In this document: positions 15,401 to 60,802 of the stretch, one piece after another
How the letters are laid out: every line of letters starts with the position of its first letter
Position numbering within the stretch: position 1 is the first letter of the stretch
Source of the DNA: Cavenderia fasciculata
Lineage: Eukaryota; Evosea; Eumycetozoa; Acytosteliales; Cavenderiaceae
Assembly (NCBI RefSeq): GCF_000203815.1
Contig: NW_004457695.1
Span: 2,418,001-2,482,000 of the forward strand
DNA: 64,000 bases
Direction of reading: 5' to 3'
Notes under the pieces: generated by a model
What the model was told of the DNA's origin: nothing
What the model saw: the letters and a program-made list of their open reading frames with translations, nothing else
Databases searched by the model: none
Position numbers and translations under genes: made by a program

Positions 15401-18400
15401 TTATGTTGGTCTACGAATGGTGGTGATTGTTGCTTGGAAATTGGTACTCTTGATCACTGGATTTGGGACGGGCGACTGACTAGAGGATTGGTGATGAATG
15501 AATGATTGATTGGTGAATGAGGGGTGTGGATTGGAGTGATTGGTAAAGATTGTAATGTTATTATGATTATTCTTTGTTGTAATTGGAATGTTATTATTTG
15601 TTGGTGAACAATGAGGGTGTTGTCTGTCTATGTAAGAGGAATGGTTGTTGTTGTTATTATTATTTGTTGGTCTTGTGTTGTTATTTGTTTTTGTATTTTT
15701 GTTATTATTGTTGTTATGATTATGATTAATATTTTTTGTTTGATTGTTGGTTGAGATGAATGTTTCAACATGGTTGAAGCATGAAAATGATGATGATGAT
15801 GAGTTGGTGTTGAGATTAATATTTTTGCATTTTATGTAGTTATTGTTATTATTGTTGTTATTATTTGCATTATTTAATGACTGTGGATTGAAGTGGTTGG
15901 CAAAGATTGTAATATTATTACTATTATTATTGGTTGGTGAACAATGAATGGTTTGTCTGTCTGTGGAAGAGGAATAATTGTTGTTGTTATTATTATTGTT
16001 ATTATTATTATTATTAATATTTTTTGTTTGATTTCTAGTTGAAATGAATGATTCAACATGGTTGAAACATGAAAATGATGATGATGATGATGAGTTGAAA
16101 TGTTTAGGTGAAATGGATGATGAATGAATTAATGAATAATTATTATTATTATTTGATTGATTACTATTAAAAAGAATTGATTGGTTTTTAACATGGTCTA
16201 AACATGTTAATGAATTAAATTTTGTGCTTCTACTGTTCGATTGAACAGACTCCTCCTGATCTAAATTAATATTGTTGGTGGTTGTTGAATGATTTGGTGA
16301 TTGACAATGAAACAAAACATCACTAGAGTTTAATGGTAATTGAGAATGAGATTGAGACAAAACATTTAAATTAAAAGGAATTGACATTGTGGATGAATTA
16401 AAAGATAAATTATTGTTATTATTTGAGGATGGTGGAGTGATTTGTGAATGTGGATTGTGAATTGAATTGTGAGTGTGGATTGTGGTGAGGATTGTATGAT
16501 TGATTGGTGATGATGGTTGTTGTTGTATTGTTGAATGATTTGAATGATTGGTTCCGAAACAGTCGAGAGAATCAAAATAATTGTTGGTATCTCTAAAAAT
16601 AATAAAAGAGGAATCAGTAAAATGCTTTAAATTGTCAGAGATTGTTACCGCGTTGTTTTGTAATCTTGAAACGTTGGAGTGTCTTGAAAATGGTCTTGTC
16701 TTTGATATTGGACACATTGAGATTATTGTTGTTGGATTGTTTAATGTGTCTAAGTAAGAGGAATAATTGTTGTTATTATTATTTGTTGGTCTTGTGTTGT
16801 TATTTGTTTTTGTATTTTTGTTATTGTTGTTGTTATTATTATTATTAATATTTTTTGATTGATTGTTGGTTGAGATGATTGTTTCAACATGGTTGAAGCA
16901 TGAGAATGATGATGATGAGTTGTTGTTATTATTGTTTATATTATTTGCATTATTTAATGGCTGTGGATTGAAGTGGTTGGCAAAGATTGTAATATTATTA
17001 CGATTATTATTGGTTGGTGAACAATGAATGGTTTGTCTGTCTGTGGAAGAGGAATAATTGTTTTATTATTATTATTATTATTATTTGTTGTTGTGACGTT
17101 ATTATTATTATTATTTGTATTTTTGTTATTGTTATTATTATTATTATTATTAGAAGATTGTCCAATGGTTTGAGGATTGTGGATCGATTGGAAATGAATG
17201 TGGAGGGTGGATGGATTGGTGAGGATTGTGAGATTGTTTGATTGGCAATGAGTTAAAATATTACTTGAATTAAAACATGGAATCGATGATTGATGGCCAT
17301 AGAAGAATGAATTATTATTATTATTATTATTATTGATGGAAATGATTGGTTGATGATCGAAACATGGGATTGAATTTGTTGTTTTGTTGTTGTTTGATTG
17401 AACATCTATAAGAATGTGGTTGTTGGTTGTTGAGTGATTTAATGGTAATTGAAAATTAAAAGGAATTGACATGGATGATGTATTAAAAAATAAATAATTA
17501 TTATTGTAGTTAGGAACGAATGAATGATTTGATTGACATTGAGTATCACTTGAATTATAAAATAAAATGGTTGATTGATGGAAAGAAATACTATTATTAT
17601 TATGAATTGATTGATGTTCAACATGGTTGAACAATGAGATTGTAATTGTGTTGTTGTTGTTGTTGTTTTTGTTGTTGTTCAATTGAAATGACACCTCATT
17701 CTGCTCCTCCTCTTCTGCTAAAAGAAAATGGTTGGTTGTTGAATGATTAAAGAGTATTGGTGATGATTGACAATTGGTTGAAACATCACTTGAATTAAAT
17801 GGAGTGTACATGTATAATGAGTGAATAAGTGAGGCTGATTCATTGGTATTATTTTTGTTGTTATTATTATTATTTGAGGATGGTGGAGTGATTTGTGAAT
17901 ATTGATTGTGAGTTGATTTGTGAATGTGGATTGTGGTGAGGATTGTGTCATGATTGAGTGGTGATGATGATGGTTGTTGTTGTTGTATTGTTGTATGATT
18001 TGAATGATTGGTTCCGAAACAGTTGAGAGAATCAAAATAATTGTTGGCAACTTTGGTATCTATAAAAATAAAAGAAGAGGAATCAGTAGAATGCTTTAAA
18101 TTGTCAGAGCTTGTTACCGCGTTGTTGTTGTTTTCTATTCTTGAGATGTTGCTGGAGTATCTTGAAAATGGTCTGGTCTTTGATCTTGTTGAATTAATTG
18201 TATTTGGTAATAAATATAATGTTGATGATGATGATGATGATGTGGAAGTGTTTGAAGAGTTAAAATAATCACATGAAAATGGAATAGGCGAAATCAATGA
18301 TGATGAATGAATTAATGAAAAATAGTTATTATTATTATTATTATTATTCGATTGATTATTAATTGGAATTGATTGATGTTTAACATTGTCTAAACATGTT

Positions 18401-19401
18401 AATGAATTTGTGATGTTTATGATGCTTTTGTTCAATTGAACAAACTCTAAAAGAATGAGGTTGTTGGTTGTTGAATGAGTTAAAAAATCACTAGATTTAA
18501 AACATGGAATCGATGATTGATGGTCATTGAAGAATGAAATATTATTATTATTATTATCTAAGGGAATTTTTTGGTTGAAATATGAAAATGGGATTGCACT
18601 GTTGTTGTTCAATTGAACAGATTCCTCCTCCTCTAAGATGAGATTTGATTGATGGTTAGCATTGAAACACGAGATTGAAATTTGACTGCTGTGGAAGTCC
18701 TCCTCCTCCTCCTCCTCCTCTAAAATAATATGGTTTTTGGTTGAATGATTTGAGATACACAAAACATGGCTTGAGTTAAAGAGAATATTGTCTGAAAACG
18801 ATGGAAAACTACGAATTGGTAATGGATAGCTAAAGGAAATTAATTGATGTTCAACAAGGTTGAAACATGAGATTGTGGTGTTGCTGGTGTTACTGTTGTT
18901 GGTTGAGTGATTTAATGGTAACTGGAAATGGGATTGGGACAAAACATTAAAAGGAATTGAAATTGATGAATTAAAAGATAAATTATTATTATTATTATTT
19001 TTGTTATATACAAGAATAAAAGTATGGTTTGATGGTAAATGACATTGAGAAACAATATGATTTGAATCAAATTGGGTTTGTGAAATAGATGAATCGATAT
19101 CGTTATTATTATTGTTGTTGATGTTTTTGTTGTTTTTGTTATTTTTGTTTTTGTTAAGAATGATTGGATGTTCAAAATGATTAAAAGATGACAATGAAAC
19201 GGATGATGGCTGCATCATCATAGACAAAGAAATATTTTTATTTTGGATGATAGTCGATTGTTGTTCAACTTGGTTGAACAATGAAAAAGATGACAATGAA
19301 TTGGTGTCGTTGACAAAGACATATTGGTTGTTGCAAGACATATTGGCAAAAACAGATGATACAACGATACACAAAATAAAGATGATAATTAATGGGTTCA
19401 T
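15401..19401 (-). CDS. Secreted Asn/Ser-rich repeat protein with one apparent frameshift
   Basis: The start at 19401 encodes a signal peptide (MNPLIIIFILCIVVSSVFA) and then NMSCNNQYVF. The rest is low-complexity Asn, Ser, His and Thr sequence with recurring words: FNHVEH, SCFNHVE, LPLNHSTTN, QSHFQLPLN, IPFN. The frame from 19401 runs to 16954 and the frame ending at 15401 begins upstream of 17000 in a different phase. They swap at a T4 tract (17061-17064) where the internal duplicate near 15979 has one more base. Adding one base makes 4002 nt, or 1333 residues. So this is probably one gene with either a real single-base deletion or a sequencing slip. Many NxS/T sites suggest heavy N-glycosylation if secreted. 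Function unknown; cell-surface or spore/slime matrix are guesses. Confidence 0.7.
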
Positions 19402-20240
19402 GATTGGATAATTAATGTAAATAAATGATTTTTGGTTGTTGATAGGTAGTAGTAATGATTGTGTTGCTGTAAGACTATAGATAGATGGTAAGTAGAAAAA
19501 AAAAAAAACAAGAGAAAGAGAAATGGTTAATTAAAGTTTAAGAGTTTGAGTTGGATATAGTATAGAGAAGGTAAAAGAGAGGGAGAGAAAGAAAGAGAGA
19601 GAGATAATAGTAGAACACTATTATTATCTGTATATCATACGATTTTTGAAACAAGTTTCATAAAAGAAATAAAGTGGATGATCAGTGGATAATATAGAGT
19701 ATGAGAGAGAGACTGAGAGAAGGTTGGTTAGGGTACCAAGAAATACTAGGTAATATTATTTAAATATTTTTAATATTAGTTTGTGTGTGGGTAGTGGGGG
19801 GTTTATATATATCTGATGCGAATAATTAATTTTCATTGCTGGATGATGGTGATGATTTTGTGGGTGGTGGGGGTTTCTTGTCTCACAGTCTGTCTGTCGT
19901 CTTAAACGAGTTTGACTAAAAAGGGAATGCAATCAACACACCCAATTAAATTTGATGTTCATTGGCTGTCTGCCGCACACTGACACGCACGCACAAACTC
20001 TAACAAACGAGTGCTGCACTAAGCAGCAGCAGCAGAGCGCGCATTGCAAGTTCAGTAAACCATGTGGTGCTGTCATGATTGATTGATTGATTGATTTCCT
20101 GTCGATGCAATAGTAATTACAATCTTGGAGAAAGACAAATATATAATCATAAAAGAGTCATTCATTTTGGTCAATCATATTAATAAATAAATAAATAAAT
20201 AAATTAAAATTGTCAATTGAGTTCCAAAAAAAAAGAAAAG
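19402..20240. other. Intergenic region between repeat-protein start and stlA end
   Basis: The left end should carry the promoter and 5' UTR of the repeat-protein gene. It holds GA-rich tracts (about 19568-19605), a GC-richer patch with CAGCAGCAGCAGAGCGCGC near 20023-20043, and GATT/AAAT microsatellites. No gene is supported. Confidence 0.4.
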
Positions 20241-20478: not shown

Positions 20479-23400
20479 TTAGACCATATTCTTTAAGACA
20501 CAACCTTCAAAAGCAAGACCAGGACCAAAGGCAAGAGAGATAGAGTATTGAGGTAGTGACTTTGAATGACGAGCATGTTCGAGTACAAAGATGACCGATG
20601 CACTAGACATGTTGCCGTAGTTTCGGTAGATGTCCCACGAGTGTTGGTTCTGCTTGGATGTGATGCCAAGACTCTGCTCGATCGACATGAGGATAGCCTT
20701 TCCACCAGTGTGTATGAGGAATTCGCATTCCTTGGGTGTGAGGTCTTGTGTTTGACTCTTGTTCTTGGCCAAGAGATCATTGACAAACGACTCGATACCA
20801 CCTCCGATGTGGTGCGGGATGGACTGGTCGAGACCGAGGTCCCATCCATCGGTACTAATATCCCATGTCATTGTGTGTGCAGTGTCTGGTACCGATCTAG
20901 TCATAGAACCAATCACCTCAAAGAGTGGGTGTTCGTAGATGGTTGGGTTACAACCGAGAATGTAGGCGGCTGAACCGTCGGCAAAGATGGTCGACGCTAC
21001 GATTTGGTCAACACCTTCCTTGGTCGAGAAATGGGTGCTACATATCTCTGTGCAGACTACCAGAACACGGTTCTTGGGATGTTTGCTTGCAAGTGGTACA
21101 GCGGCACGCATCGACGAGAGACCGGCTAGACAACCCATAAAATTGACAGATAGACGTTCAATATCCTTGTTGAGACCGAGACGTTGGATCAGCACAAAGT
21201 TGATGTCAGGCACGACGACACCAGTTGATGACACAGACACAATGTGAGTAATATCTTGGATACTACCACCCCACTCTTTAATGGCCTTTTCACAGGCACG
21301 TTGTGAGAGATCGGGTGCACACTTTTGGAACTGACGATTAACATCATTGATATTTTCATTCTTGCGATGACGTAGAGCAGTCTCTTCGCGCAATGGATTA
21401 CGGTATAGGTATCTAGTGTTGATTTGCGATTGCTCAAAGATCTTGGACACCTTGTCGACGACCAACGGGTCGCTCGAAAAGTCCTTGGACATGACGGCCG
21501 ACAACTCTGACTGCTTGAGTGGCTCGTTGGGCACAGCCGTTCCAATACCCAAAATGTATGGGTTGTTGTTGCTTGTTGGTGCAGTCTGCATCAAACTTGG
21601 TGACATGATTGATGATAGACGACGGTTGACAATGGCAGCTGGATGTTTCATTGGCGATGACGACGAGTTGGTAGAAGCAGCGGCGGCAGCAGCAGCAGAG
21701 GCAGCAGACAATGGTGGAAGTGGAGATGCGACAGACGATGGAAGACTGTGGTTGCGACTGACATTGGCAGAGATCTTGGGAGACCCAATCAAATGGTGTT
21801 GCTTTGGTTGTTGCATAGGTTTTTGTACCATTGGAGATGACTTTACCTTTACTGGCTCTTCTGCAACCGGTGTGGTTGATCCGACCACCATGTTGGGGTT
21901 GGGCAGAGATGCAGGGGTTGTAGTCTTGGCAAGAACTGGTTTCTTGGTGACTGCTGCTGCTTTAGCAGATACTCCAGTCGATGGGATACCCTTGGCTTGT
22001 ACAACCTTTTCAACAAGATCATTGATACTCGAAGAGGAGAGTTGAATATGCGAGAATAGATTCTTGTTTTCAAACTCCTTGTCAATCCATCCCTTGAATT
22101 GGACGGTCAACAACGAGTCTAGACCATAGTCCTTTAACTTGGTGTCTAGGTTGAGCTTGGACTTGTTGATCGAGAGTAGGTCGGATACCTTGTTGGTCAG
22201 CTTTTCAAGGACACTTTCACTCGTGAAACTTTCCTTTTGCGATGCTCCACCTATTCCTCCATTCGACGATGATGAAGATCTTGCATTGCGTTCAGAGCCA
22301 GCATAGATGAGATGCTCCATCTTGGGACGCATGTGTTCGTAAGAGTCGAAAAAGAGTGATGTGACCATTGGCGTGATGACGAGTTGGTAGAGATTCAATG
22401 CGCCGCTAGTGTTGAGCACGTTGGATTGGTTGAGTGCTGCTTCTAGAGCACCAAAGAACTTGCCGATCGAGAGGACGGGCAGTCCACGACTGGCAAACAA
22501 CGATTGGATAGCTTCATTCTCGGCGACCTTTCCACTGGCGTCGAGGGGACCCCAGTTGATAGCGAGTGCAGGGAGACCGGCTTGACGACGGAAGTTGGCG
22601 AGAGAGTCGAGTACGGCATTGGCAGAGTTGTAGGCTGCCTGGTCATAGTATCCAATCACACCAGTAATCGACGAGAACAAGATAAAGTGTGACAACTTCC
22701 AACAGTTGATGATTGACAGACGATGCAAGTTGATAGCACCCAACACCTTTGGATTGTGGACATTGGAGATGTTTTCAGCGGTCACCTTGGAGATGGGCAC
22801 ATCGTCATAGACAGCGGCCAAATGGAAGACGGCGCGGACGGGTGGTGCGTTGGCCAGTTTGTTCTTGACGGTCTGGGTGAGGTTCTCCATGACCGACACG
22901 TCGCAGCTTGCAAATACAATGTTGACCAAACGCTTGTGTGGCTCTTTCATCAGCTTTTCAAGCTTCCACTTTAACGAGGACTTTGAAATGACGATGATGT
23001 GAGACACCTTGGAGTGTTTGATGAACCAGGCAATGATTTGCAACGAGATACCAGTCTGGCCGGTAATGATGATCGTGTCCTTGAGGTCGACGAGATAGTT
23101 GGATTTGGCAACCTCAACCTTTTCATTCTTTTGCTCGTGATGCAAAATGTCAGAGCAGTCAATGATGATCTTTCCAATGTGACCACGCTCGCCAAGTGAT
23201 TCAATGGCTTCCTTGGAACGTTCAGCAGCGTATACTTGGATGGGTAGTTTGTTGAGCTTACCCTCTGCGACCCAACCGACGATGGTTTCTAGCATCTTTT
23301 GGAGTTGCTTTGGTTTCTCGTCGATAAGACGTTCCAAGTCAACACCACAATACTGAATGTCTCCCTTAAAGTTACCCATGTCTAATGGTTCGTTGGCATA

Positions 23401-26400
23401 GATGTGGGTGACGGACAGATCGGCGATACGACCAAACGACGACATTGATTCAAAGTTGGATTGGGTGTACTCGCCAGACAAAGTGTTGACAAGACAGTCG
23501 ATCTTTCCTCTAAGCTCGGCGGCATACTCTTTGTCACGAGTGCTGTAGATATGCTTGATCATAGAGCCATACTGTTGGACAAGATAGTTCTTCTTGTCCT
23601 TGGAACCGACTGTTGCGTAGATGCTACCGTCAGCAGCACCCTTCATCTTGAGCAGGTTGAGACAGGCGAGACCGACACCACCAGTGGCCGAGTGGATCAG
23701 GGCAGTCTCGTCCTCGTCCATGTGGTTGACCTTAAAGAGCGAGTGGTAGGCAGTACAGTAGACGACGGGCAGCGATGCAGCTTCAGAGTACGAGATGGAC
23801 TCTGGTTTCTGGACAACGAGGTGTTGCGAGGTGGTTACATGCGATGCAAGACTGTGACGGGCAAATCCGAGTACTTGGTCGCCAATCTTCCACTGGCTGA
23901 CAGCAGACCCAATGCGAGTTATGGTGCCAGAACATTCTAGACCAAATGGTGGGTTGTAGATATCACCCTTTCTAAATATCTCGGCTGGCAACAATCCCTT
24001 GTAAAAGAGGTTGTCTTTAAAGTTGACACCGACTGCTTGCACCTTGATTTCAATGTCATTGGGTGCGAGTACCTCGGGCAACGTGCAGAATTGGTAGTCG
24101 AGACTTTGCTTGGACTTGCAGTAGAGCTTGTCGACGTTGGTCTCGTAGGCGACCTGCGATTTCTTGGCGTCGACGGGCTCGATGAGTTGGCGATTCTGGA
24201 AGAGACGTGGTACCAAGACAGCACCGTCCTTTTTGACGATATACTCCTTGTCGGCCATCTCCATCGATACGAGCTTGATGATGAATGCCAAGTCGGCAGT
24301 ATCCTCTTCTTCAATGTCGATCGAGTAGATTTGGAGTGCAGTGTCTGCGTACTCGTTCATAGCAGTACGGGTCAACCCAATCAACGAGGCATTGAGATAG
24401 TTCTTGCTGGTACGTTGGGCACACTTGGTGAGCACGACAATCTTGGGGACATGCACACCTCTCTCGGCCATAGCTCCGGCCAGTTGGAAGAGCTTGGTGA
24501 GTTGGTAGGTCACGAGTTGGTAGTTTCCATTGAGTGTCTCGACACCAGTCATAAAGAATGCAATCGAGCTCTTGGACAAGCTTGCTTCAATAGTCTTTTC
24601 ATCTTGGAGTGATGGGTTGCGGAGTAACTCTGTTTCAATCACATCGACTTTCTCTTGACACAGTACGAGTGAGTCACGGAGATACTTGGAGATGAGAGAC
24701 TTGCGACCTTCGATAGTTGGACTGTTGACACCATTGTTGGTGAGACCGTTGGCGAGTGTGGCACTACCTGGTACAATCATAGAACAGTAGGCGACAGAGT
24801 CACGACTGACTCTAAACTCGGATATACTCTGCTTTTGGGCGTGTACGACAAACGAGTGGTCTTGTCCAATTTCCTTTTCTTCAAAGTTGATAAATGACAC
24901 TGGGTAACGGAACCCACCAATTTGGTTACACAACAATTCAGACCATTCGTTGGGACGGATGGCACAATGCTCGGTACGGAACTGGTCACTAAACTGCCAC
25001 CATTGATGGAAACATCCAAACACAATGTCAGAGAATGTCATCTTGGGTGAAGGTTCGATAAACATTAACCAACCATTTGGTGCGAGCATATCGTATAGTT
25101 GACGAATACCCTTTTCCAAATCAGCAACGGCATGCAATACATAGGACATTACAATACAATCATAATCGGATGGAAGGAATGATTGAGAGGCATAGTCGAG
25201 TTCAAGATTCAGTGTCTTGTAAACCATCTTGATACATCCATTACTCTTTTCAATCACCTTTTGGAACTTGGATTGAATGTCAGAGTTGATAAACGATGCT
25301 GAAATATCGGTAAAGGTGTAGACAACCTCGACACCGGACTTTTCATAAGTAGTACCTTCAAAGAGTGATGCCAACTTGGTCAAGAGCTTGGTGGTGAGTG
25401 AACCAGTACCACCTCCAACTTCGAGTATTTTGATCACCTTTTTACAGTCTTGGTCAGACTTTGTGACAATATTACCAATGGCCTTTTGGATTGTGCTACC
25501 AACTTGCTCCAAATAATAGTCAACGGCTGTTGAAGAGGTGTAAAAGGAGCTGAGAAGGTTATTCTCAAACAGCGAGTGACAGGCAGTGCTGTCACCTTGG
25601 AGCAGACGTGGAATGATAGAGGTTGCACGCTCGATCAATGTCAACTCGAGATTGGCATCGGGATACTTGGCAAGAACCTTTGACTTTAGATCGATGGGAG
25701 ACATGGATTGATAGTCTGCAGCCGATGGCACCAAAGAATGGATTTCAAACAGTCTTGTAAGGAAACGAGTAAAGCTAGTGTCGATACCAACTGACTTCAT
25801 GTATTGTTCCATGGTCTGTGCATTCTTCTTGGTCCAGTCCCATCCACTGATAGTCTCTAATGTCTCTTTTAACAAGAGACAACAGTAGTTGACAAAATCA
25901 GTGTCTACAAGTACTTGACTCTTATCGTGTAACTCGGTCATCGGATCGGCCATGATAGAGGTTGGGATGGGAAGAGATGACTCTTTGGATTGCCAGTTGA
26001 TAGTGTAGACTTGGTCAGATGGCTTCTTGATAGTGTTGACCTTGTACTTTTCCAACGATTTCAATGTGAAGCGACCAACCTCTACAATGACTTGACCGTC
26101 CTGTCCAATCAATTGACAGGTTGCATGCACCTGGGTAGAGTGATCGGTTGGGTTGAGTATACGAGTGTAGAGATAGAGTTGGTCAATTTCATCGGTTTGG
26201 TTAAAGAGGGTCTGCGGATAGACTTGCATCTTGTCGACTCGTTCAACTACAAAATGTTGGTTGCTGTCTTCTAGAATACCCAATACGCCATGGAAACAAT
26301 TATCCAATACCATTGCATTCAACACTCTCTTGTAGTTGTTTCGGTGGTTCTCAATGACCTCGTTGCCATCAAAGCTGAGCAGACACAGAGATTCAAAGTT

Positions 26401-29400
26401 TGGACCAACCCACAACTTGTCAATCACCTGGAAGTGTTTGCCATAGCCGAGACCAAGTCGAACGATTCTATGGTAGAGTTCGGAACGATCGATTGAACAA
26501 ACATCACAATCGGCCTTGAGTTGCAACAAATCAACCTTGGGTACAGATGTGAGACTTTGGAGGATAGTGTCGTTGAGGATCTGGCTCGATGACTGTGGGT
26601 TCAGTTGGATCTTGGCCTTGCACATTTTACTCCATTTCTTTTGGTTGATCGAATCCTTTTGGTAGAATTGGAATTGGTATACATTCTTGGAGATACGATC
26701 GATCGTAGTCTGGAGATGTTGTTGCTCACCCTCGACCAAAAAGAACGGGCTGAGAAACTCGATGGATTGGATGAGGATGGACGTGTGGGCAGCTGTCAGT
26801 TGGTCATTTGAATGCTTCTCCAAGTACTCGACTGCCTCTAGGATAATGTCGAGGTAGCCTGCACCAGGGAAGATGGGCTTACCACGCACCTTGTGGTCCT
26901 TCAAGTAGGCATAGCAGTTCTTTTTGACGTCAATGATGGTTTCAAAACTCTCCTGCCCGTTCAAGTGTTTCTTCCAACCGATTAAATCGATTGTTGGACC
27001 CTTGAGACGGAGGTCGTGACTGTACAACGACTCGTTCCAGTACTGGGTATCACTCTCCCATTGATAACGGGGTAGGATGTTGGTCACCTCCTTCCAGAGA
27101 TTGGTCGATAGGATAGACTCATCAAACTGTGTGCCAAAGTCAATATTGACACCTTGACAATACAACTGTGCCACCGACGAGTAGAATGTCAACAACTCAT
27201 CCTTGGAACGGTGGAGTGCCGACATTACGTTGGTACGCAAACCGGCATTACCACACTTGTTGATGAGATAGGCGAGTGTTGGGTGAGGAGTGATCTCGAG
27301 GTACACTAGACGCTTGTGTTGGTTGCTCTTGGTGTACTTTGATAGATTGGAAATAGCCTTTTCAAAGTGGACTGGTTCACGAAGGTTCTTGTAGATGTAT
27401 TGAGCATCGACTGGGGTGGTTTGGAGATCACCATAGACTGTCGAGAACAATGGCACCATTGGACGGAATGTGGATGGCAGATCGGCCAATGATTCAAGTA
27501 CCTCCTTTTTAATGGCCTTTTGGTAGGATGAATGGAACGAGCATGGAGACTTGAGGAAGGCATTAAAGATACCCTCCTTTGTAAGCTGGCTGGCTAGTTC
27601 TTTTAATCTATCCTCCTTTCCAGTGACGACGATTGATTCTGGAGCATTGTAACAGGCAATCTCCAAATCATGGAACTCATTTCCATACTTTTCGTCAAAT
27701 GATTGCGAACCAAGACTGATGGCCAACATCTTACCGCTTCCAATAGTCTTGTTTTGCAACATACTTCTATAATATACAATTTTAATGGCTGATTCTAATG
27801 AAATGGCACCTGAAAAGTATGCAGATGTTACTTCACCAAAACTATAAGAGAGAAAAAGAGTAAGTTAAAAGTTAAATAATTAAATATAATATTATATATT
27901 TATATATTTATATTTATATTTCTTTTTAATTAATTTATAGTTACCTATGGCCAATAACCATTGAAGGTTGAATACCAAACTTTCCATAAAGAGCAACCAA
28001 ACCCATTTGAATTAAAAATAAGGCAGGTTGAGCAATGATTGGAGTGTTGATGGTGATTTGATCGTCTTCGGCAATGGAACCGATCTTTTCCCAAACACTA
28101 TAGCCACAGTACTTTTTCAATAGGTCGTCACAAATGTCAATAGTGTCTTTGAATACTGGTTCAGCTTCATAAAGCTTTCTACCCATTCCATTCCATTGTG
28201 GACCTTGACCAACAAATACAAAGCAAACTGGGATATCCTCTCCAGGTACATTGTCACTGCTAGAAAGAACATTAGAGATGGCTGGATTGGTTCCTTCGAG
28301 GTACTCTTTCCAATCCTTGGCAATGACCACCTTACGGTGAAGTAAATTGGCCTTCATGGTGGATTGATGTAATGCAAACTCTTGGAAATTAATCATATGA
28401 TGATAGTTTGTATTATCCTTTACCTCTTGTTCATATTTATCCAATGACCATTCAGAATTTGAACTTGTAGGAACCATATAATATTTTTCTTTTTCAGCTC
28501 TAGAGGAAAAGAGAGTAATCAAAAAAAAAAAAATAACAAATTAATTAATATTAATTATTATTATTATTATTTTTTTTTATAATATTTATATTTATATTTA
28601 TAGATTTAACATACAAAGAATAATCAGGTTCTTGATTAATATATTCTTGAACAACTAAATGACAATTGGCACCACCAAATCCAAATGAATTGATACCAAT
28701 ATTTACAATTTGGTCCTCTGGGAACACTTCAATTTCATTTACGACTTGGATGTGGTATTGATCGAATGGAATCTTTGGATTGGGTTGGTTAAAGTGGATA
28801 CTTGGTACCAACATACGATTCTTTAACATCAGAGATGACTTGATGAGAGAGGCAATACCGGCAGCAGATTCCAAATGACCGATATTGGTTTTGAATGATC
28901 CAACTTTCAAGGGAAAGTCTTGTGAATGGTTACTAGTAAAAACGTTAGAGAGAGCTCCAACTTCGATTGGATCACCAACAGGAGTACCAGTTCCATGGCA
29001 CTCTACATAGTAAATATCATTTGCAGCAAGCTCACTCTTCTCAAGTGCACTTGCGATATTTTTGGATTGTGATTCACCCGATGGTGTTGTCAAAGATGAC
29101 TTGTCAAAAGATCCATCTTCATTCATATTTGAACCAAGGATGACTCCATAAATTCTATTTTTATCTTTTTCTGCTTGTTCTAATGATTTTAAAATCACCT
29201 AAACAAAACAAAACAAAAATAGATTAAAACAGTGGTTTGTTAGAATAATGAAAATATATAATTATTAATTATTTTTTTTTTTAGTTATATATTTTTCAAC
29301 TTACAATTCCAGCACCTTCACCACGAACATAACCATTGGCATCGGCATCAAAAGTTTTACATCTTCCATCTGGATTGAGAACTCCTAGACTGGAAAAAGC

Positions 29401-30033
29401 AACACTGGTCGATGGGTCCAACAAGGCATTGACACCTCCACAGATGGCAACTTTACAATCGCCGTTGGCGATGGATTGGAGACCCAAAGAAACAGAAGCA
29501 AGAGAGCTGGAACAAGCAGTATCGACGGTAAGCGATGGACCACGGAAATCGTAGCAGTAAGAGATACGGTTAGATATGATCGAGGCATTGCTACCGGTCA
29601 TGGCATAGGGGGATTGTTCGGAAACGTCCTTGTATTGCAACTTCATGTAGTCGTGGTTACTGACACCCATAAAGACACCAGTGTCGGTTCCTCGGAGAAT
29701 GGTTGGGGAAATTCCAGCATCTTCGAGTGCCTCCCACACAAGTGTGAGCAGGATTCTTTGCTGGGGATCGATCAATGGAGCCTCTTTGGGAGAGATGCCA
29801 AAGAATAGACTGTCAAAACATTTCCATTCGTTCATGTTGAGGAAACCCCCATATTTATTATTAATCATATCAGTGTCATTGTAGGTAGAGCTCCAACGGT
29901 CCTTGGTAACAACAGATACACCGTCGAAACCTTGAAGCAATTGACTCCACAACTCTGTTGGAGTTTTGGATCCACCTGGCAATCTAAAACCAAGTCCTAC
30001 AATGGCAACCTTGTTATTATTATTATTAGTCAT
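20479..30033 (-). CDS. stlA: Steely hybrid polyketide synthase (type I FAS-like plus type III PKS)
   Basis: Four exons, 29305-30033, 28615-29198, 27945-28499 and 20479-27841, join in frame to about 3076 residues; introns are 106, 115 and 103 nt. Visible domains: KS (DTACSSS Cys174, ECHGTG His311, NIGH His351); AT (GHSFGE, Ser623, codon split by intron 3); DH (HKVRGKPIFP, about 938); methyltransferase (EVGGGTGS, about 1432); ER (about 1900-2180, ATGGVG); KR (TGQTGIS about 2215, YNSAN about 2355); ACP (GLDSL, about 2545); Ser/Ala/Pro linker; then a type III synthase from about 2715 with its Cys (MGCLAG), His (LIHTGG) and Asn (YGNMSS). In Dictyostelium discoideum, StlA makes the alkylresorcinol differentiation factor MPBD. 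An intact C-methylation motif and the C-terminal sequence favour stlA over stlB. Every active site I can recognise is present. Confidence 0.94.
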
Positions 30034-32504: not shown

Positions 32505-32988
32505 TTCTTCCTTCTTTTTGATTTCTTCTTCTTTTGTTTATATAAATTACAAATATTAATACAATGAATGAATGAATAAATGAATGAATGAAAAGATAAT
32601 GAATGATAAACTTTTAAAGCTAATACTGTGAAAAAAAAAAAGATATAATGGAGCTCTTCAAAATTGAGTGGTTTCAGTATCTAAGTTGTTATCTATTCTT
32701 CTAGAGAGAGAGTGCGTGTACGTATGAGTGTGTATGGTTGTGAGGAGTTTGTTGGATGGTTGAAGAATAGAAAGGTTAAATTAAATATATTATCTATGCG
32801 TAATTAAACAGACAACATCGCTTTGCGTGCATGCTCTGACGGGAAAAACATAATGTATTGCTCTTTCGTTCGTTTTCAAAATCAACATATATCGTATTCA
32901 TTCAAATTATCTATCTCTATCTATCTGCTATATTAGTATTATTATAATTATATGAATACGTGTCGAACATAACTTATTGTGACACATC

Positions 32989-34253
32989 ATGTTATTCAAC
33001 AACATCACCAAATATATTAAATGCAATAATGGAGCAAACACACTCAATGCATGTTTTCTGAAATCAGTGACGACATCATCATCATCAACAACAAACAACT
33101 ATAGATACAACAACGTCAGCAATGGGTGTTATTCAAGTACGATAGTAACATCAAATAATAGAATATACAACAATAATAACAACAACAGATACTATACTTC
33201 GTCACGACCCAAAGTGATGGTGATTGCTGGACCAACGGGTATTGGTAAATCGAGGATTGGTATAGAGATTGCAAAGCAGATAGGTGGTGAGATTATCTCT
33301 GCCGACTCTATTCAAGTATACAAGAATGTTAATATTGGGAGCAACAAGCTACCCGAGGACAACATACAACATCATCTCATCGATATTCTCGACGTCGGTC
33401 AAGAATATGGTGTCATACAATTTTACAACATGGCAATGGATGCGATCAAGGATATATTGAGTAGAGGCAAGGTGCCCATTGTCGTCGGTGGCAATGGCTT
33501 TTACGTCAAGTCGCTGTTTGACGGCCTGTCAGGCGCCGACGACGGTGCACCCAGCCACGACAGACTAGTGTGCGACGGCATCGAGCAGCGTCTGCGTTCA
33601 GAGAACAACTGGTACAAGATGTTGTCTGTTTTACGAGAGATTGACCCTGAATCGGCCGACTCGCTTACACGAAACGATTATCGTCGAATGGCCAAGTCAT
33701 TCTACGTGTACTCGCAGACTGGCCAAAAGTACAGCAGCTTCAAGAAGCGTGACCCGGGGCCTGCCGAGACACTCTACGACTTTAGATCATTCTATGTGAC
33801 TACGCGTCGAGACTTTCTCATGTTTTTACTCAACTATCGGTGCGAATGGATGATCCAAGACGGACTCGTCAAAGAGGTAGTCGACCTACTTCTCAACGGT
33901 ATGTCACCCAGCGATGCTGCCGCACGTTCCATTGGATACCGTCAGTGTGTTGAAGCACTCCTCACGCCCATGGACACCCCCATCTCCAAAGACCACGCCA
34001 CCAACTTCCTCAACGACTTTATGTCTAGCACCCGAGCCTACTCTAAGCGCCAAGCCATCTGGTTCCGAAAGTGCGAGCGTACCCAATGGGTCAATCTCTC
34101 ACCACTCCCAGAAGAATCTCTCTCCATCTTTAACGGTGGTCAAGATCTAAGTAGTTGGAATCCAAAATCAAAAAACTCTGTTCCAACTGGATGGTCACCA
34201 ATCTCTCCTCCATCTCCAACACTTTCAACTGTCGAACAGTATGTATTATGATA

Positions 34254-53432: not shown

Positions 53433-56400
53433 ATGAATCAGAAATTTAAACAACAAGATGATATCGCAATTGTCGGTATTGGGTGCAGATTACCTGGTGG
53501 CTCAAGAACACCACAACAATTCTACGATCAGTTACTCCAAGGTCTTGATGGTATCACAACGTCGACACCAGACAGATGGTCGAAATCATTCAGTGATCAG
53601 AATTTCATTAACACTGACAACCAATAATAATTATTTTTTTTTAAATCCGATCACACTACTTTTGATACTCTCACATATATACTTTCAAACCAAATTAAAT
53701 AAAACTTTATCGATATCATTTGTTTCCTACTCGACGATATGATGGATCCTCGGTGGTTTCTTGGACATGAAAGAATGGACTCATTTCGACCGTCACTTCT
53801 TTATGTCACTCACTGCCGAATCTCAAGTGCTGGAGCCTCAAATACGTCTCTTTTACACCATTGTTTGGGAGGCTTTGGAAGATGCTCGAATTGATCCAGC
53901 ATCAATGAGAGGCTCCAATACATCGGTATTCATCGGTCAGATGTTTGAATCTAATTCTCCAATGCAAACACACGACATCACAACGATGAAGCCGATTCTC
54001 AGGGCCGGCAGGTCAGACACTGCGCTCGGGGTAGCCTACCAATATGACTTTCGTGGTCCTGCCTACTCGATAGACACTGCTTGCTCGTCATCGCTGGTTG
54101 GAATTCTCCAAGGAATCGAAACCATTCAAAATGGTGAAAGTGACGTTTCGATCTGTGGAGGCATGAACTGTTTCATCGAGCCAACCGTCTCTATCCACTT
54201 TTCTCAGACCGGATTGGTTGGAAAGGGTGGCAAATGCGCTTCGTTTGACTCATCAGCCGATGGATATGTTCGTAGTGAAGGTGTTGGTGTAGTTGTTCTC
54301 AAGAAACTATCAAAGGCTATCGAGGATAATGACAATATATATTGCGTCATCAAAGGTGGTAATTGCAATGCCGATGGTAACTTTGAAAAGACATCCCCAA
54401 CTGCTCCATCACACGCTGCACAACAAGTCAACACTAAAACAGCACTTGCCAAGACAGGACTATCGCCATCTGACATTTACTATGTCGAATGTCATGGAAC
54501 GGGAACACCCATAGGTGATCCACTAGAAGTACAAGGTATAGCAGGTGTATTTGGTCAGTCACACACCAAAGAACAACCACTCCGAATTGGTTCGGTTAAA
54601 AGTAACATTGGTCATACTGAGAGTACGGCCGGTGTTGCTTCGATCATTAAATGTGCAATGATGCTAAAGAATAGAATGCTCATCAAGAATATCAACTTTA
54701 AAGAATTAAACCCAAAGATTGATCTGTTGGATGGTAAAATCAAGATTGTATTGGAGAATGAACCTTTACCAGATAGAATCATTCGAATGGGAATTAATTC
54801 ATTTGGATTGACCGGTTCAAATTCTCATATCATTATTGAAGAATTTAAATGTCAAAATAATTCAAATAATGATTCAAATGGTAACTATATTAGTATAATA
54901 TATTCTTAAATATTCTAGTTTTAATTAATTTAATTTAATTTAATTTAATTTAATTTAATTTAGATTCTTCTTCTTTAGTTTTAGATTATTTAATTCCATT
55001 TTCAGCAAATAGTCAGAAATCATTGGATTCATATGTTGATATGATCAAGAATAATGTTGATTCATATCGAAACAAAATGTCATTTGAAGATTTTGTTAGA
55101 CATCAATCACAATCGACCAATCATCCAGTTTGTAAAAAGTTGATTGTTGCCAAAGATTGGGATTCTTTTGAATCAGCAGCTACACTAGTCTATGAAAAAC
55201 AACAATCCTTTGTTTCAAGCATGTCTCAATTAAATAAGGCAGTAACCAAACCAATTGTAATGGTATTTTGTGGTCAAGGAGCACAATGGAGTGGTATGGG
55301 TGATCAACTATACCACCATTACAAAGTATTCCGTGACTCGGTTGACCATGTCGATCAATTACTCTATCAACACTATCAATATTCAATCATGGCTCAACTC
55401 AGACAAAGCAATGAAAAAGATATTCACCATCCAATTCTTGCTCAACCATCAACCTTTATCATTCAAGTAGCTTTGGTTAAATTATATCAATCTTTTGGAA
55501 TTGTTCCATCAATCGTTGTTGGTCATAGGTAGGAAGAAAATGAATAATATTAATTTAACAAATTAAATGATTGATATATTATTAACATCATATTATATTT
55601 TTATTTTTATAGTTTTGGAGATATAACGGCAGCATGGTGTTCAGGAATTATATCTTTGGAAGAAGCTTCAAGAATAGTTTATCTTAGAAGTGTAGCTCAA
55701 AATATGACTATTGGAAGTGGAAGAATGTTGGCAGTATCATTGACATTTGATACATTCAAAGAGAGATTCCAACAACAATTACATAAGCCATCACAATATG
55801 ACTCTATTGAATTGGCATGCTATAATTCGGTTGATTCAATTGTATTGGCAGGTGATGAGGAGCAACTCGAACCAATCAACCAACAACTCAAGAATGATAA
55901 TATATTTAGTGCATTCCTCGGAACACCATGTGCATTCCACTCAACAAAACAAGAATCAACAAAAGAGTTTATATTTAATCATTTGGATAATAATATTAAA
56001 TATGAATGTGATCGACCAACGATTCCATACTTTTCAACAACCACATCACAATTAATCAAATCATCATCTGAATTTAATGCACAATACATTTATGATAATC
56101 TTAGACAACCAGTATTATTCCAACAATCAATTAATAATATCATAGACTATACAAAGAACAATGGTCCTTTGCAGGAATATATTTATTTAGAGATTGCACC
56201 ACATTCAACTCTATCATTCTATTTGAAAGCATTATTATCATCATCACAACAAAAAGCAGCAACCATTTTATCACCATTGAATAGAAAAAAGGATCAGGTT
56301 GAATCAATTCAATCATGTCTATCGCAACTCTATTTTAATGACGCCAGCGTTGATTTTACAAATCAATTAATATCAACGGCAGGTGACAACGGATGGAAGG

Positions 56401-59400
56401 ATAGAACTAGATACTTGCCAAGATATCAATGGGATGCTGAATATTTATGGTGGGAACAACCAAAGTTTAAAAAGATTAGATTGGAAGGAACTTCAACAAC
56501 ATTGCTTGGTATCTGTGACGACCAACCAATCTTGGCCTTTGAATCAACGATTGATGTTGCTCGACCATCGTATCAATATTTAAAAGGTCACAAAGTCAAA
56601 GGAAAATATCTGTTCCCAGGAGCCGGTTACATTGAAAATATTATCAATGCATTCCCAAACAAAGATATTCATATTCACCACCTCGAATTTATTGCACCAT
56701 TCTTTCTCAAAGAAGGAGCACCATCGCGATTGAAATCATCATTTATTTCATCATCATCAACCGACTATCAGGTAGTATTCCAATACTATGATGACAAAGT
56801 ATCGAAATGGATCAAATCATCAGTTGGAAGATTGTCAATCACGACCCCTTTAATAACCAAGAATCTTGTCGACAAGTATGACAATGTCGATAAACTAAAA
56901 CAAGAAGCATACAACATTGCAACAATGACACAAACAGACGTTTATCAAAAATTGGCCAAAGTAGGATTGCTTTATGGTGAAACCTTCCGTCGAGTCAAAC
57001 AAATATCGTTCAGTCAAAGTGGTTCGATTTTATCTGAAATTGAATGCAAATCTAGAAACCATTTTGAAGAATCAAACACAGTTTTGAATGCATCTGTATT
57101 GGATTGTATTCTTCATTCCAATCTTGTTCAATTCAAAGGTGAAGGGAGTCAGTGTGAGTTGGTATTTGACAGAATCGAAGATTTCCAAATCTCGTCCAAC
57201 AATATACCTCGACACCCTTGTCAATCGTTATTCAACATTGCAAAGGCATCACTAAAGATGAAAGAAAAACAACAAAGAGGAAATGAATTTAAAGGATCGA
57301 TTGATATCATTGATCACGATGGAAACATTATTATCAAATGTAGAAAGATTGTTTGTACATCTTTGACCAAGGTTGTAAAAACTCACCAAGCCAAACACCC
57401 ATCAAAATTCATCAAACAATCCATTTATCAACCAAAGAATTCTCCATCTCCTCCTCCTCCTCCCCCAAGTTTGTCTTCATCGTCTCTCAATGTTTTTGAA
57501 TATTTGGAAGGACTCGTAAAGTCGTCACCTTCAACCCACAAAACCCTAAGAGTATTGGATTTTATTCACAATGAATTCATATCATTAGAGATCATAAGTT
57601 GTTTTAGTTACTTGGTTACCTTAAGAGGAGACATTATGATCGATTTTATCGCACCAACCAACAGTGTTATCTCGATGGACCTCAAAAGGGATAACCTGTC
57701 TGTTAAATTCTATCAAGATTACAACACATCGTTCACATTAAATGACCAGGGTTTCCTTTCAAATAGTTGTGATATCGTTTTGTCAACAATCGATCTTGTA
57801 CAAAACAATAATTACCTATTATCGGAACTATCACAACTGTTAAATCCAAATGGTCAACTCGTTTTCATCAACAATAATGATAATGATTCACCAGATGAAA
57901 ATGATAGAGAATCGTTCATCAACAACAATATCAAATCAGCTCAACTCAACATTATTCTTCAACAGCCAACAACGATCAACGGACCAAAAAGCAATCAAGT
58001 CTTGTTAATTTGTCAAAAATCATCAATTGAAGAAACTGATATCAATAGATATGATCATTTATTATTCATTACACCATCAAGTTCCTCTTCCTCCTCTTCC
58101 TCCTCAAGATTGTTAAAAAGATTAATTGAACAATCAAAGAAAATTCAGAATAATATTTGTTTATTTTCAGTTGATGATATTATGGATGAATCTAAATATC
58201 AGACGTTATTGGATTCCATTTCATACAAAGATGGTAGCAAAGTAGTAATTATATATTTAGAATCAGTGGAAGAAATGAAAATTGATAATTTAGAATTAAA
58301 ATCAATGCAACTCATTCGACTACACCAAATAATTAGAAAGGAACAACTACCAATCACATTAATATCATTAATATCAAGTCAGCTGAATCAATGTTTGATT
58401 CCAATATGCAGAGAATATGAACGTCCTTCTGGACTATTCTTATTTGACTCTGTTTCAATGATTATGGATGATCAATGCACCAACCAAATCTCGCTCTCTC
58501 AAATATTAAAATTTGCCAACCATCAACATATTGGAGAGAAACATGTCAAATTGGACTACATCAACAATTCCATTCAATTATCTACTGAAAGATTCATTGA
58601 AACACCAAATGCATTGGAATTGGATCAAAGTTTCATTATTACAAACAAACAAGAGGCCAAAGTCAAATTTGAAAAAGATAGCCACTATCATCTAAGACCA
58701 AAGGTTGAGATATTAAAAGACAATCAAGTTGAAATCCAAGTCAAAGCTGCTTCAATTAATTTTAAAGATTTAATGATTTTAGAAGGTAAATTTATAAACT
58801 GTCAATAATAGTGGTTATTTAAATATTAATTTTTAATTATTATTATTATTTTTATTTAGGTAGAGTAGATCAAAGTTTATTTACTTCTGGTGATTTGAAT
58901 GATCCACCTCTTGGGCAAGATTGTTCGGGCGTAATCACAAGAATTGGCTCAAAAGTAACTAAATTCAAAGTAGGAGATGAGGTTTGTGCCTATACATCAT
59001 CGTTTGCATCGTCAACACTGACAAGGGAAGATTGTATGGTTCACATTCCCAAAGGCATGTCATTCACTCAGGCAGCATCTTTACCAGTGGCAATGGGAAC
59101 AGCATACAGTATATTGTATAAAAGAGCACATATTGAAACATCGGAATCAATTCTTATTCATGGTGCAGCTGGTGGCGTTGGATTGGGAATGTTAAACCTT
59201 TTAAAACACGGTCAACATAGAGGAAAGATATTTGTGACGACTGGCTCACCCGATAAAAAAGAATACCTAAAACAACAATACGGAACCTTTATTACAGCTA
59301 TTCTATCGTATGACAACTTTACGCAACCCATTCTAGAAATGACACTTGGAAAAGGAGTCCACTATGTAGTCAATACGCTCGACTATTCAAAAATGCATGC

Positions 59401-60802
59401 CAATTTCAAGTGTCTCTATAAAAATGGAATTCTCTTTGATTTGTCAGTTGATCAATTCTTCCAGGTCGATGATATTGCTACGTTGCATTCCATTACAACT
59501 CGAAATTTATTCAATCTCACACCCATGTAAATGAATTGATCGCCAAGGGACTAGAGCTACCCCCCTATCAAGACTTTTCCATATCATCAAATCACCGATG
59601 CATTGGATTATGTGAGATCAAGAAAACATATTGGAAAGGTGGTGGTTGACTTTGAAAATGTGGAAACAGAACTGTTGGAACCAATGTTGTCGGAACCAAA
59701 CAAGAAACCAATTGAAAGATTGAATTACAGTCTCGATGGTATCCAAGACACTCTTTTAATCACTGGTCAAACTGGTGTAGCCATTGAATCACTTCAATAT
59801 ATCATCAAACATTCACCCAAACTACGTGATATTATCGTTGTCTCATACTCGGCACCAAAATATGAAATACAATTATTGGACAATGACATTAAAACAAAAT
59901 ATAAACACCTACAACTGCATTACTTGCAATGTGATATTGGAAATTACAATCAACTAGCTTTATCGATTCAACAACTTTACCAGAGACATTCAAACATAAA
60001 ACCAGTCAAATCAGTTATTCATTGTGCAAACAACTATGTCTTTTCATTGTCTGACGATTTGACGATGGATGTCCATCACCAAGCACTTTCGGCCAAAGCA
60101 ATTGGAGCTTGGAATCTTCACACTCTATTTGAACGGTTGGATTGGAAGCTGAACCATTTCCACACAATGTCATCGATTGCTCAATTTGCAGGACGAGAAA
60201 GCTTTAGTTACTCTGTTGCCAATGCATTCCTTGACAATTTGGCACAATATCGTCGTAATCTTGGATTGCAAGGCACTTCTATTATCTGGGGATCGATTGG
60301 ATCGACAGGAAGGGTTGCCATTGACAAGGGATCAAATGAAGGACTTTTGTCTGTTGGTTTCGATATTATGCCTCTTCATAGTGTCTATGGTATTCTTCGT
60401 GCATGCTTTATCAATGATCACACTCCATTTACGGTTTTACAATGTACATCATTGTCAATCAACAAATTTGTTTCAGCATCGCCAAACCTCTCTCATCTCT
60501 TTTGTCTTATGTCCAATGTCATTCCAAAGAACACCATCCACAATAACCTGTCTGCTTCTCTCCAAGATAATATAGAAAACAAGATTCTAGAATTCATTTC
60601 AGAGACCCTGTCAATTGAAAAGCACCTATTAAGCGGTGACACCAAACTCAAAGACTATGGTGTAGACTCGATGATTTCCATTCAAATTAGAACATGGATT
60701 GAAAACGAATTTAAGAAATCCAATTTTCTAAATCAAGCCCAAATATCAAATGGAACAATCAACTCTATCATTGAAACTATAAATCGTAATTTAAAGTCAT
60801 AA
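53433..60802 (+). pseudogene. Second type I polyketide synthase, frame-broken relative of stlA
   Basis: Reads KS-AT-DH-(degenerate MT region)-ER-KR-ACP over roughly 2330 codons. The 5' KS piece (53433-53624) resumes at GGFLDMKEW (53752) with a 125-bp gap lacking a plausible GT...AG pair. Good exons follow: to 54880, 54964-55528, 55613-58785 and 58860-60802. The KS has DTACSSS (Cys codon 54082) and ECHGTG; the AT has GHSFGD (Asp for the usual Glu, Ser codon split by an intron as in stlA); DH has HKVKGKYLFP; ER has HGAAGGVG; ACP has DYGVDSM. No EVGxGTG methyltransferase motif is visible, and no type III domain follows. In the last exon an extra AC at 59519-59522 and an extra T at 59575-59578 break the frame, with a TAA at 59528. 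KS and carrier residues remain, so decay is recent or the breaks are base-call errors. Confidence 0.82.
54918..54963. repeat. AATTT pentanucleotide tract in a PKS intron
   Basis: About nine copies of TAATT run up to the acceptor (TTTAG) of the intron between the KS and AT exons of the second synthase. They form the pyrimidine-poor end of that intron. Confidence 0.85.

What the first reader, a model, noticed from the sequence alone, without database searches (positions are those of the whole stretch)
20479..30033. Complete steely hybrid synthase: multidomain type I PKS fused to a type III PKS
A single reading path of about 3076 codons joins a full FAS-like module, including a methyltransferase with an intact glycine motif, to a chalcone-synthase-like enzyme with its Cys-His-Asn residues. 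In this architecture the acyl chain can pass from carrier domain to type III enzyme without release, giving alkyl-resorcinol or phloroglucinol signals. This is known in Dictyostelium; the present gene is a divergent orthologue, and the methyltransferase points to a methylated product such as MPBD.
Basis: partly seen in the sequence, partly recalled or inferred. Interest (0 to 1): 0.85.

Follow-up and report, generated by a model that had tools for sequence, protein, structure and literature searches.

The report
Slime-mould SteelyA hybrid polyketide synthase
This is a complete slime-mould enzyme in which a fatty-acid-synthase-like assembly line is fused to a chalcone-synthase-like ring-making enzyme; it is the counterpart of a known signal-making enzyme, SteelyA, and the evidence suggests that the slime mould's two fused enzymes of this shape arose separately.

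Summary
On the minus strand, 30033-20479, four predicted GT-AG exons give one 3076-residue frame with KS-AT-DH-MT-ER-KR-ACP and a C-terminal type III PKS, catalytic motifs present. The type III domain is 62% identical to Dictyostelium discoideum Steely1/StlA (PDB 2H84; 501.8 bits, next PDB hit 160.3), groups with it at 100/100, and is 27% identical to the genome's second Steely (contig C17, StlB-like, no methyltransferase hit). New here: both halves of the two Steely proteins appear to differ in ancestry. StlA's KS joins the dictyostelid clade with Pks16; StlB's does not (AU p=0.003 against sisterhood). Among prokaryotes StlA's type III is nearest free type III PKSs of Chlamydiota; StlB's joins mycobacterial and brown-algal enzymes (one clade: AU p=0.013, 0.036, 0.065 in three row sets). 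So the fusion probably arose twice. Product (MPBD-like alkylresorcinol) and splicing are inferred. A free-standing type III gene, 72% identical to StlB's domain, is also present.

The parts
29305..30033 (-). Exon 1: start codon, most of the ketosynthase (active-site DTACSSSL at 29523-29500)
28615..29198 (-). Exon 2: rest of the ketosynthase (ECHGTGT at 29003-28983)
27945..28499 (-). Exon 3: KS-AT linker and first part of the acyltransferase; the AT catalytic Ser codon is split by intron 3 (GH|SFGE)
20479..27841 (-). Exon 4: rest of AT through type III PKS and stop codon
27148..28222 (-). Acyltransferase domain, aa 531-854 (spans intron 3)
   Evidence: mapped
26047..26946 (-). Dehydratase domain, aa 922-1221
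   Evidence: mapped
24964..25449 (-). C-methyltransferase domain, aa 1421-1582, with ILEVGGGTG at 25428-25402
   Evidence: mapped
23161..24063 (-). Enoylreductase domain, aa 1883-2183 (HSATGGVG)
   Evidence: mapped
22540..23073 (-). Ketoreductase domain, aa 2213-2390 (AAYNSAN present; glycine motif reads TGQTGIS)
   Evidence: mapped
21997..22236 (-). Acyl carrier protein, aa 2492-2571 (LKDYGLDSL)
   Evidence: mapped
21562..21996 (-). Low-complexity Ser/Ala/Pro-rich linker, aa 2572-2716, between ACP and type III PKS
   Evidence: sequence, mapped
20482..21561 (-). Type III PKS (chalcone-synthase-like) domain, aa 2717-3076, 62% identical to D. discoideum Steely1 type III (PDB 2H84)

Best explanation
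The gene is the SteelyA (StlA) orthologue of this dictyostelid, most likely Cavenderia fasciculata. Shown by sequence: one frame with a fully equipped iterative type I PKS, a C-methyltransferase with an intact glycine motif, an ACP, a low-complexity linker and a type III PKS of the StlA clade. Inferred mechanism: the type I half builds a short acyl chain on its ACP by fully reducing cycles, then makes one more malonyl condensation whose alpha-carbon the MT methylates and which is left unreduced; the ACP swings the alpha-methyl-beta-ketoacyl chain on the linker into the type III dimer, which adds two malonyl units and closes the ring by aldol condensation with loss of CO2, giving an alkylresorcinol such as MPBD (4-methyl-5-pentylbenzene-1,3-diol). 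The methyl next to the pentyl group in MPBD is what methylation before hand-over predicts. Inferred ancestry: a dictyostelid FAS/PKS of the Pks16 group joined to an alkylresorcinol-type type III PKS, separately from the fusion that made StlB.
For: Open frame, splice sites and motifs; domain order. Type III: 501.8 bits to Steely1 against 160.3 for the next PDB hit; 62.1% (223 of 359) identity to 2H84 against 27.1% (92 of 340) to the C17 domain; 100/100 with 2H84 in four trees. MT hit with glycine motif here and no MT hit in the C17 protein. Type I half: D. discoideum Pks16 (9NJU) is the best PDB hit of exon 1 (309.9 bits) and exon 4 (1069.4 bits). StlA makes MPBD in D. discoideum (PMC4164351, passages); StlA and StlB are stated to be conserved across slime-mould species (PMC9489281, passages).
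Against: No RNA, protein or metabolite data for this species were available. No full-length D. discoideum StlA or StlB was held, so orthology rests on the type III domain alone. The ketoreductase glycine motif (TGQTGIS) departs from the canonical form as I recall it; the neighbouring PKS has a similar one (TGQTGVA), so it is probably tolerated. The point of methylation and hand-over is deduced from the structure of MPBD. The match to C. fasciculata rests on genome size and A+T content only. One paper read (PMC12828403) assigns the DIF-1 chain to Pks1/StlA, against the other papers, which give DIF-1 to StlB and MPBD to StlA.
Confidence: 0.9

Rival explanations
1. It is the StlB (DIF-1/THPH) Steely of this species and the C17 gene is StlA.
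For: Both are Steely hybrids and both lie in this genome.
Against: Type III domain 62% identical to D. discoideum StlA against 27% to the C17 domain; trees 100/100; MT hit here, none on C17.
Confidence: 0.02
2. Two neighbouring genes, a type I PKS and a type III PKS, that only look fused.
For: No RNA evidence. In D. discoideum the StlB type III domain is released by cleavage late in development (PMC9489281, passages), so a working free domain is possible.
Against: ACP, linker and type III lie in one uninterrupted frame inside exon 4; the two D. discoideum Steely proteins are described with a chalcone synthase fused to the C terminus (PMC3188802, passages).
Confidence: 0.04
3. It is an StlA orthologue but makes a different product, for example an acylpyrone or a resorcinol with another chain length.
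For: Product length and cyclisation depend on cavity residues that cannot be read from sequence with confidence; 38% of type III positions differ from StlA. D. discoideum StlA itself is credited with a pyrone or an olivetol derivative (PMC3188802, passages).
Against: Domain set and MT fit StlA; the two StlA domains share most of the mapped positions 132-215 near the active site (rows after 215 there miss the catalytic residues and are not used, so this is weak).
Confidence: 0.3
4. StlA and StlB come from one fusion followed by duplication and very fast divergence; the trees are misled by long branches.
For: StlB rows have long branches (KS end branch 1.25, 2.21; type III stem 1.3-1.6). The row nearest to StlB's KS by path is StlA's KS in both KS trees, and, which had no outside PKS rows, the two are not separated. 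On the KS alone StlB scores nearly alike to bacterial CurL (343.3 bits), GfsA (332.4) and Pks16 (328.9). With one plant CHS row the AU test does not reject one type III clade (p=0.065).
Against: KS sisterhood rejected when outside PKS rows are present (p=0.0028); type III one-clade disfavoured in the other two sets (p=0.0129; p=0.0362). Pks37/StlB is the exception among the predicted KS-ACP architectures of the D. discoideum PKSs (PMC12828403, section 21 read).
Confidence: 0.3

Closest known systems
Steely1 / StlA (Pks1) of Dictyostelium discoideum, type III domain solved as PDB 2H84
   Same: 62% identical type III domain; same type I-type III fusion as described in print.
   Different: 38% of type III positions differ; species probably a group 1 dictyostelid; product and expression untested. 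The MT of D. discoideum StlA was not available for comparison.
Steely2 / StlB (Pks37), represented here by the C17 gene of the same genome
   Same: Type I PKS with C-terminal type III PKS.
   Different: C17 protein has no MT hit; type III 27% identical; both halves fall in other parts of the trees.
D. discoideum Pks16 (PDB 9NJU), the presumed fatty acid synthase
   Same: Best PDB match of the type I half; KS in the same clade (100/99).
   Different: A 2603-residue chain whose match ends with the ACP region; no type III domain.
Free type III PKS of Chlamydiota (17 of 151 genomes)
   Same: Closest prokaryotic relatives of the type III domain found here, 34-39% identity over nearly the whole domain.
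   Different: Stand-alone. Among the listed ORFs of the 3 neighbourhoods that I read (of 5 fetched) I saw no type I PKS; in one of them a methyltransferase-like and a FAD-oxidoreductase-like gene follow, by eye.
Azotobacter Ars system (type I FAS ArsA/ArsD feeding type III ArsB/ArsC) - from recall
   Same: A type I synthase hands acyl chains straight to a type III PKS to make alkylresorcinols.
   Different: Separate proteins in a bacterium, long chains, no C-methylation; not tested here.

Membership tests
Steely hybrid PKS | Reducing iterative type I PKS module ending in ACP | tested here: met
   KS, AT, DH, MT, ER, KR, ACP in order
Steely hybrid PKS | Type III PKS in the same polypeptide after the ACP | tested here: met
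   One frame, exon 4; transcript not tested
Steely hybrid PKS | Catalytic motifs of the domains present | tested here: met
   Motifs located; type III Cys, His, Asn present; the KR glycine motif is atypical
StlA | Type III domain closer to D. discoideum StlA than to StlB | tested here: met
   62% vs 27%; 100/100. D. discoideum StlB itself was not held; the C17 gene stands for it
StlA | Functional-looking C-methyltransferase | tested here: met
   PF08242 51.6 bits, cut-off 30; ILEVGGGTG
StlA | Type I half orthologous to that of D. discoideum StlA | not testable with these tools
   No full-length StlA sequence held
StlA | Makes MPBD; needed for aggregation signalling and spore maturation | not testable with these tools
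   Needs metabolite and mutant work
StlB | Type III domain in the StlB clade | tested here: not met
   Separate clade
Two Steely proteins from one fusion | Type I halves (KS) of StlA and StlB sister to each other | tested here: not met
   AU p=0.0028 with five outside rows; not separated in the tree without bacterial or Pks16 rows
Two Steely proteins from one fusion | Type III halves of StlA and StlB sister to each other | tested here: inconclusive
   AU p=0.0129, 0.0362, 0.0654: two of three sets reject at 0.05

The most novel reading that the evidence does not exclude
The Steely architecture, reported only from social amoebae, arose at least twice in them: StlA from a dictyostelid FAS/PKS of the Pks16 group plus an alkylresorcinol-type type III PKS exchanged with amoeba-living Chlamydiota, and StlB from a bacterial-like reducing PKS plus a type III PKS of the mycobacterial/brown-algal (pks18-like) group. 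Handing a chain from type I to type III in one protein would then be a convergent solution, and two developmental signals would trace to genes of bacterial type.
Probability: 0.45. Interest if true: 0.65.

Novelty: new member of a known kind. Interest (0 to 1): 0.42.

Why it matters
As a gene it shows an StlA-type enzyme, MT included, with intact motifs in what is probably a group 1 dictyostelid, so an MPBD-like signal may be ancestral. The wider point is evolutionary: if the two Steely enzymes are independent fusions, the type I to type III hand-over has been selected twice, which helps anyone designing such fusions, and the chlamydial link would tie an amoeba developmental signal to gene exchange with intracellular bacteria.

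Tried and rejected
StlB identity: rejected by the 2H84 comparison. Recent duplication of StlA within the window: rejected, the second PKS (53433-60802) has a KS 88% identical to the C21 PKS in L024 and 47-56% by pieces to StlA's. The C15 hit to PF02797 reads like an elongase-type ketoacyl-CoA synthase by eye (no library scan), so it is not counted. chlA beside the C17 Steely: not seen by eye among the ORFs of L018, the upstream side; L016, the far downstream side, was fetched but not read. A genome-wide search with PF04820 gave one hit on C1 (27.4 bits, cut-off 21). First genome-contig scan with the single domain found no relative; the alignment scan kept 80 of 363. Active-site mapping: its rows 303 and 336 miss the catalytic His and Asn, so rows after 215 are not used; I rely on motifs. 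With plant CHS rows the StlA-plus-chlamydial node falls to 61/37 and 62/48, so whether plants or chlamydiae are nearer is open, and so is the direction of any transfer. Rows dropped: of 126 loci with a type III match (some are the same place fetched twice) I used 56, 27, 39 and 34, besides 4 dictyostelid and 2 to 5 PDB rows; one search used 10 of the 15 PKS loci. Neighbourhoods of chlamydial relatives: 3 of 5 fetched were read, partly. No fungal alkylresorcinol synthase and no amoebozoan outside the dictyostelids was in the trees. No structure prediction was run.

Full report
What is there. The minus strand from 30033 to 20479 carries one gene. I joined four exons at GT-AG sites (30033-29305, 29198-28615, 28499-27945, 27841-20479); the 9231-base CDS translates to 3076 residues with only the terminal stop. 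Introns are 103-115 bases and 85-90% A+T; the last exon's real frame has one stop, the final one, in 2454 codons, against 129 and 77 in the other two same-strand frames. Pfam finds KS, AT, DH, MT, ER, KR, ACP, then both chalcone-synthase halves. Catalytic motifs are present (their roles are from general knowledge of the families): KS DTACSSSL and ECHGTGT, AT GHSFGE, DH HKVRGKPIFP, MT ILEVGGGTG, ER HSATGGVG, KR QAAYNSAN, ACP LKDYGLDSL, type III NFMGCLAG, LIHTGGK and YGNMSS. The KR glycine motif reads TGQTGIS, which differs from the usual form as I recall it; the other PKS in the window has TGQTGVA.

Where it comes from. The genome held is 30,995,898 bases in 21 contigs. Published Dictyostelium (Cavenderia) fasciculatum has 31.0 Mb in 33 contigs / 25 supercontigs and 66.2% A+T (PMC7259674, table seen in passages). 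I take it as that species by size and composition; this is inference.

StlA or StlB. Genome-wide searches with PF02797 (4 hits) and PF00195 (3 hits) point to three type III PKS loci: the window, C17 and C21; the fourth PF02797 hit, on C15, reads like an elongase-type synthase by eye. The window's type III domain scores 501.8 bits against PDB 2H84, Steely1 of D. discoideum, and 160.3 against the next entry; C17's scores 121.7 against 2H84 and 204.6 against 4B0N, which I recall as the Ectocarpus enzyme. Identities: window to 2H84 62.1% (223 of 359), window to C17 27.1% (92 of 340), C17 to 2H84 30.4% (103 of 339), C17 to C21 71.8% (257 of 358). In four maximum-likelihood trees the window and 2H84 are sisters at 100/100. 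The C17 gene is a second Steely (2784 residues, three predicted exons) without an MT hit at E <= 0.001; I treat it as StlB because it is the only other hybrid found and StlB is reported as well conserved throughout the dictyostelids (PMC7259674, passages). D. discoideum StlB itself was not available.

How it probably works. StlA makes MPBD in D. discoideum and acts in aggregation and spore maturation (PMC4164351, passages). One paper (PMC12828403, section 21) instead ties Pks1/StlA to the DIF-1 chain; the other papers read give DIF-1 to StlB. In MPBD the ring methyl sits beside the pentyl-bearing carbon. For a tetraketide resorcinol closed between C2 and C7, that is a position an MT would set on the last chain the type I half makes, before hand-over to the type III domain. 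So I infer two reducing cycles to a C6 chain, a third condensation that is methylated and left unreduced, transfer by the ACP on the 145-residue low-complexity linker, two type III condensations, aldol closure and loss of CO2. None of these steps is shown here. The MT in this gene, and the lack of an MT hit in the StlB-like gene, fit: StlB's product THPH (2,4,6-trihydroxyphenyl-1-hexan-1-one; PMC9489281) has no ring methyl.

Ancestry of the type I halves. The best PDB match of the exon 4 protein is D. discoideum Pks16 (1069.4 bits), while that of the C17 protein is mycobacterial mycocerosic acid synthase (446.6 bits; Pks16 380.1). On the KS alone C17 scores nearly alike to CurL (343.3), GfsA (332.4) and Pks16 (328.9), with 7ZMA above them through two domains (500.7; 254.9 for the better one). 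In a KS tree of 17 rows, five of them PDB rows (four bacterial domains and Pks16), StlA's KS joins the dictyostelid rows and Pks16 (100/99), StlB's stays outside, and sisterhood of the two is rejected (AU p=0.0028). Against this: StlB's KS is a long branch, its nearest row by path is StlA's KS, and the earlier 18-row tree of this genome's KSs alone does not separate the two. Published KS+AT trees already called the two Steely genes only distantly related (PMC3188802, passages), and the Pks16 paper sets Pks37/StlB apart from the other PKSs in predicted architecture.

Ancestry of the type III halves. C17 and C21 join the mycobacterial, Nocardia and Ectocarpus enzymes (95-98/92-95); StlA does not. 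Holding StlA and StlB type III together costs 32, 27 and 23 log-likelihood units (AU p=0.0129, 0.0362, 0.0654); the last does not reject. Taking both halves, I read this as two separate fusions, with long branches as the main caveat.

The chlamydial link. By BLAST the best chlamydial protein gives 268 bits, the best Bacteroidota row 205. Without plant CHS the StlA plus chlamydial node has 100/98; with plant rows it drops to 61/37 and 62/48 while StlA, chlamydiae and plants together keep 85/84 and 90/90 or 90/94 unresolved inside. So chlamydial enzymes are the closest prokaryotic relatives found, but plants are not excluded as nearer kin and no direction can be given. Of three neighbourhoods read, one has a methyltransferase-like and a FAD-oxidoreductase-like gene after the type III gene, by eye, an order that recalls the Streptomyces srs alkylresorcinol operon (recall); I saw no type I PKS among the ORFs listed. 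Type III PKS clusters in chlamydiae are in print (PMC9666466 and PMC13229535, passages).

Literature on novelty. Searches (24 of 26 papers listed; 2 of 2; 20 of 283; 3 of 3; 10 of 223; 8 of 8) listed no paper that, from title and abstract start, states an independent origin of the two Steely fusions or a chlamydial kinship of StlA. Only open-licence PMC papers are covered, the long lists were cut, and I saw passages of ten papers and one whole section of one of them (PMC12828403), no paper in full; the founding Steely paper (PMC2864586) is not held. Conservation of StlA and StlB across slime moulds is in print (PMC9489281; PMC12767764), so the gene itself is expected.

Verdict. The gene is a member of a known family; its interest lies in what the comparison says about how the family arose.

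Noticed in passing
L019:4653-6035 (minus), G000 contig C21 1968652-1970034: A free-standing 460-residue type III PKS, 72% identical to the type III domain of the C17 StlB-like Steely; no KS hit lies within 1 Mb of it. In D. discoideum the free StlB domain is made by cleavage in stalk cells (PMC9489281); here a separate gene could supply it.
   Followed up: partly
window 53433-60802 (+): A second reducing type I PKS (KS-AT-DH-ER-KR-ACP, no MT or type III hit). Its KS is 88% identical to the C21 PKS in L024, so it belongs to the lineage's expanded PKS set. The N-terminal KS part runs into TAA at 53625 with no obvious GT donor, so it may be broken or mis-assembled.
   Followed up: partly
   Followed up: partly
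L145:7699-10578: In one chlamydial genome the type III PKS is followed by a methyltransferase-like and a FAD-oxidoreductase-like gene (by eye), like an alkylresorcinol-modifying operon.
   Followed up: no
L018 (G000 C17:488000-497999): Upstream of the StlB-like gene lie repeated, very similar genes that look like EGF-repeat surface proteins (by eye), not the chlA halogenase that adjoins stlB in D. discoideum; genome-wide one PF04820 hit (C1:1010425-1010685).
   Followed up: partly
L034 (G000 C21:3288900-3293900): A PKS whose KS is 64% identical to D. discoideum Pks16, the likely fatty acid synthase of this species and the closest KS to StlA's in this genome (56%).
   Followed up: no
window 32983-34251 (+): tRNA isopentenyltransferase gene (PF01715, 190.7 bits).
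   Followed up: no
window 16954-19530 (minus): An 858-residue open frame rich in Asn, Ser and His repeats beside the Steely gene, within a stretch of strong GC skew (12-20 kb); probably low-complexity sequence.
   Followed up: no
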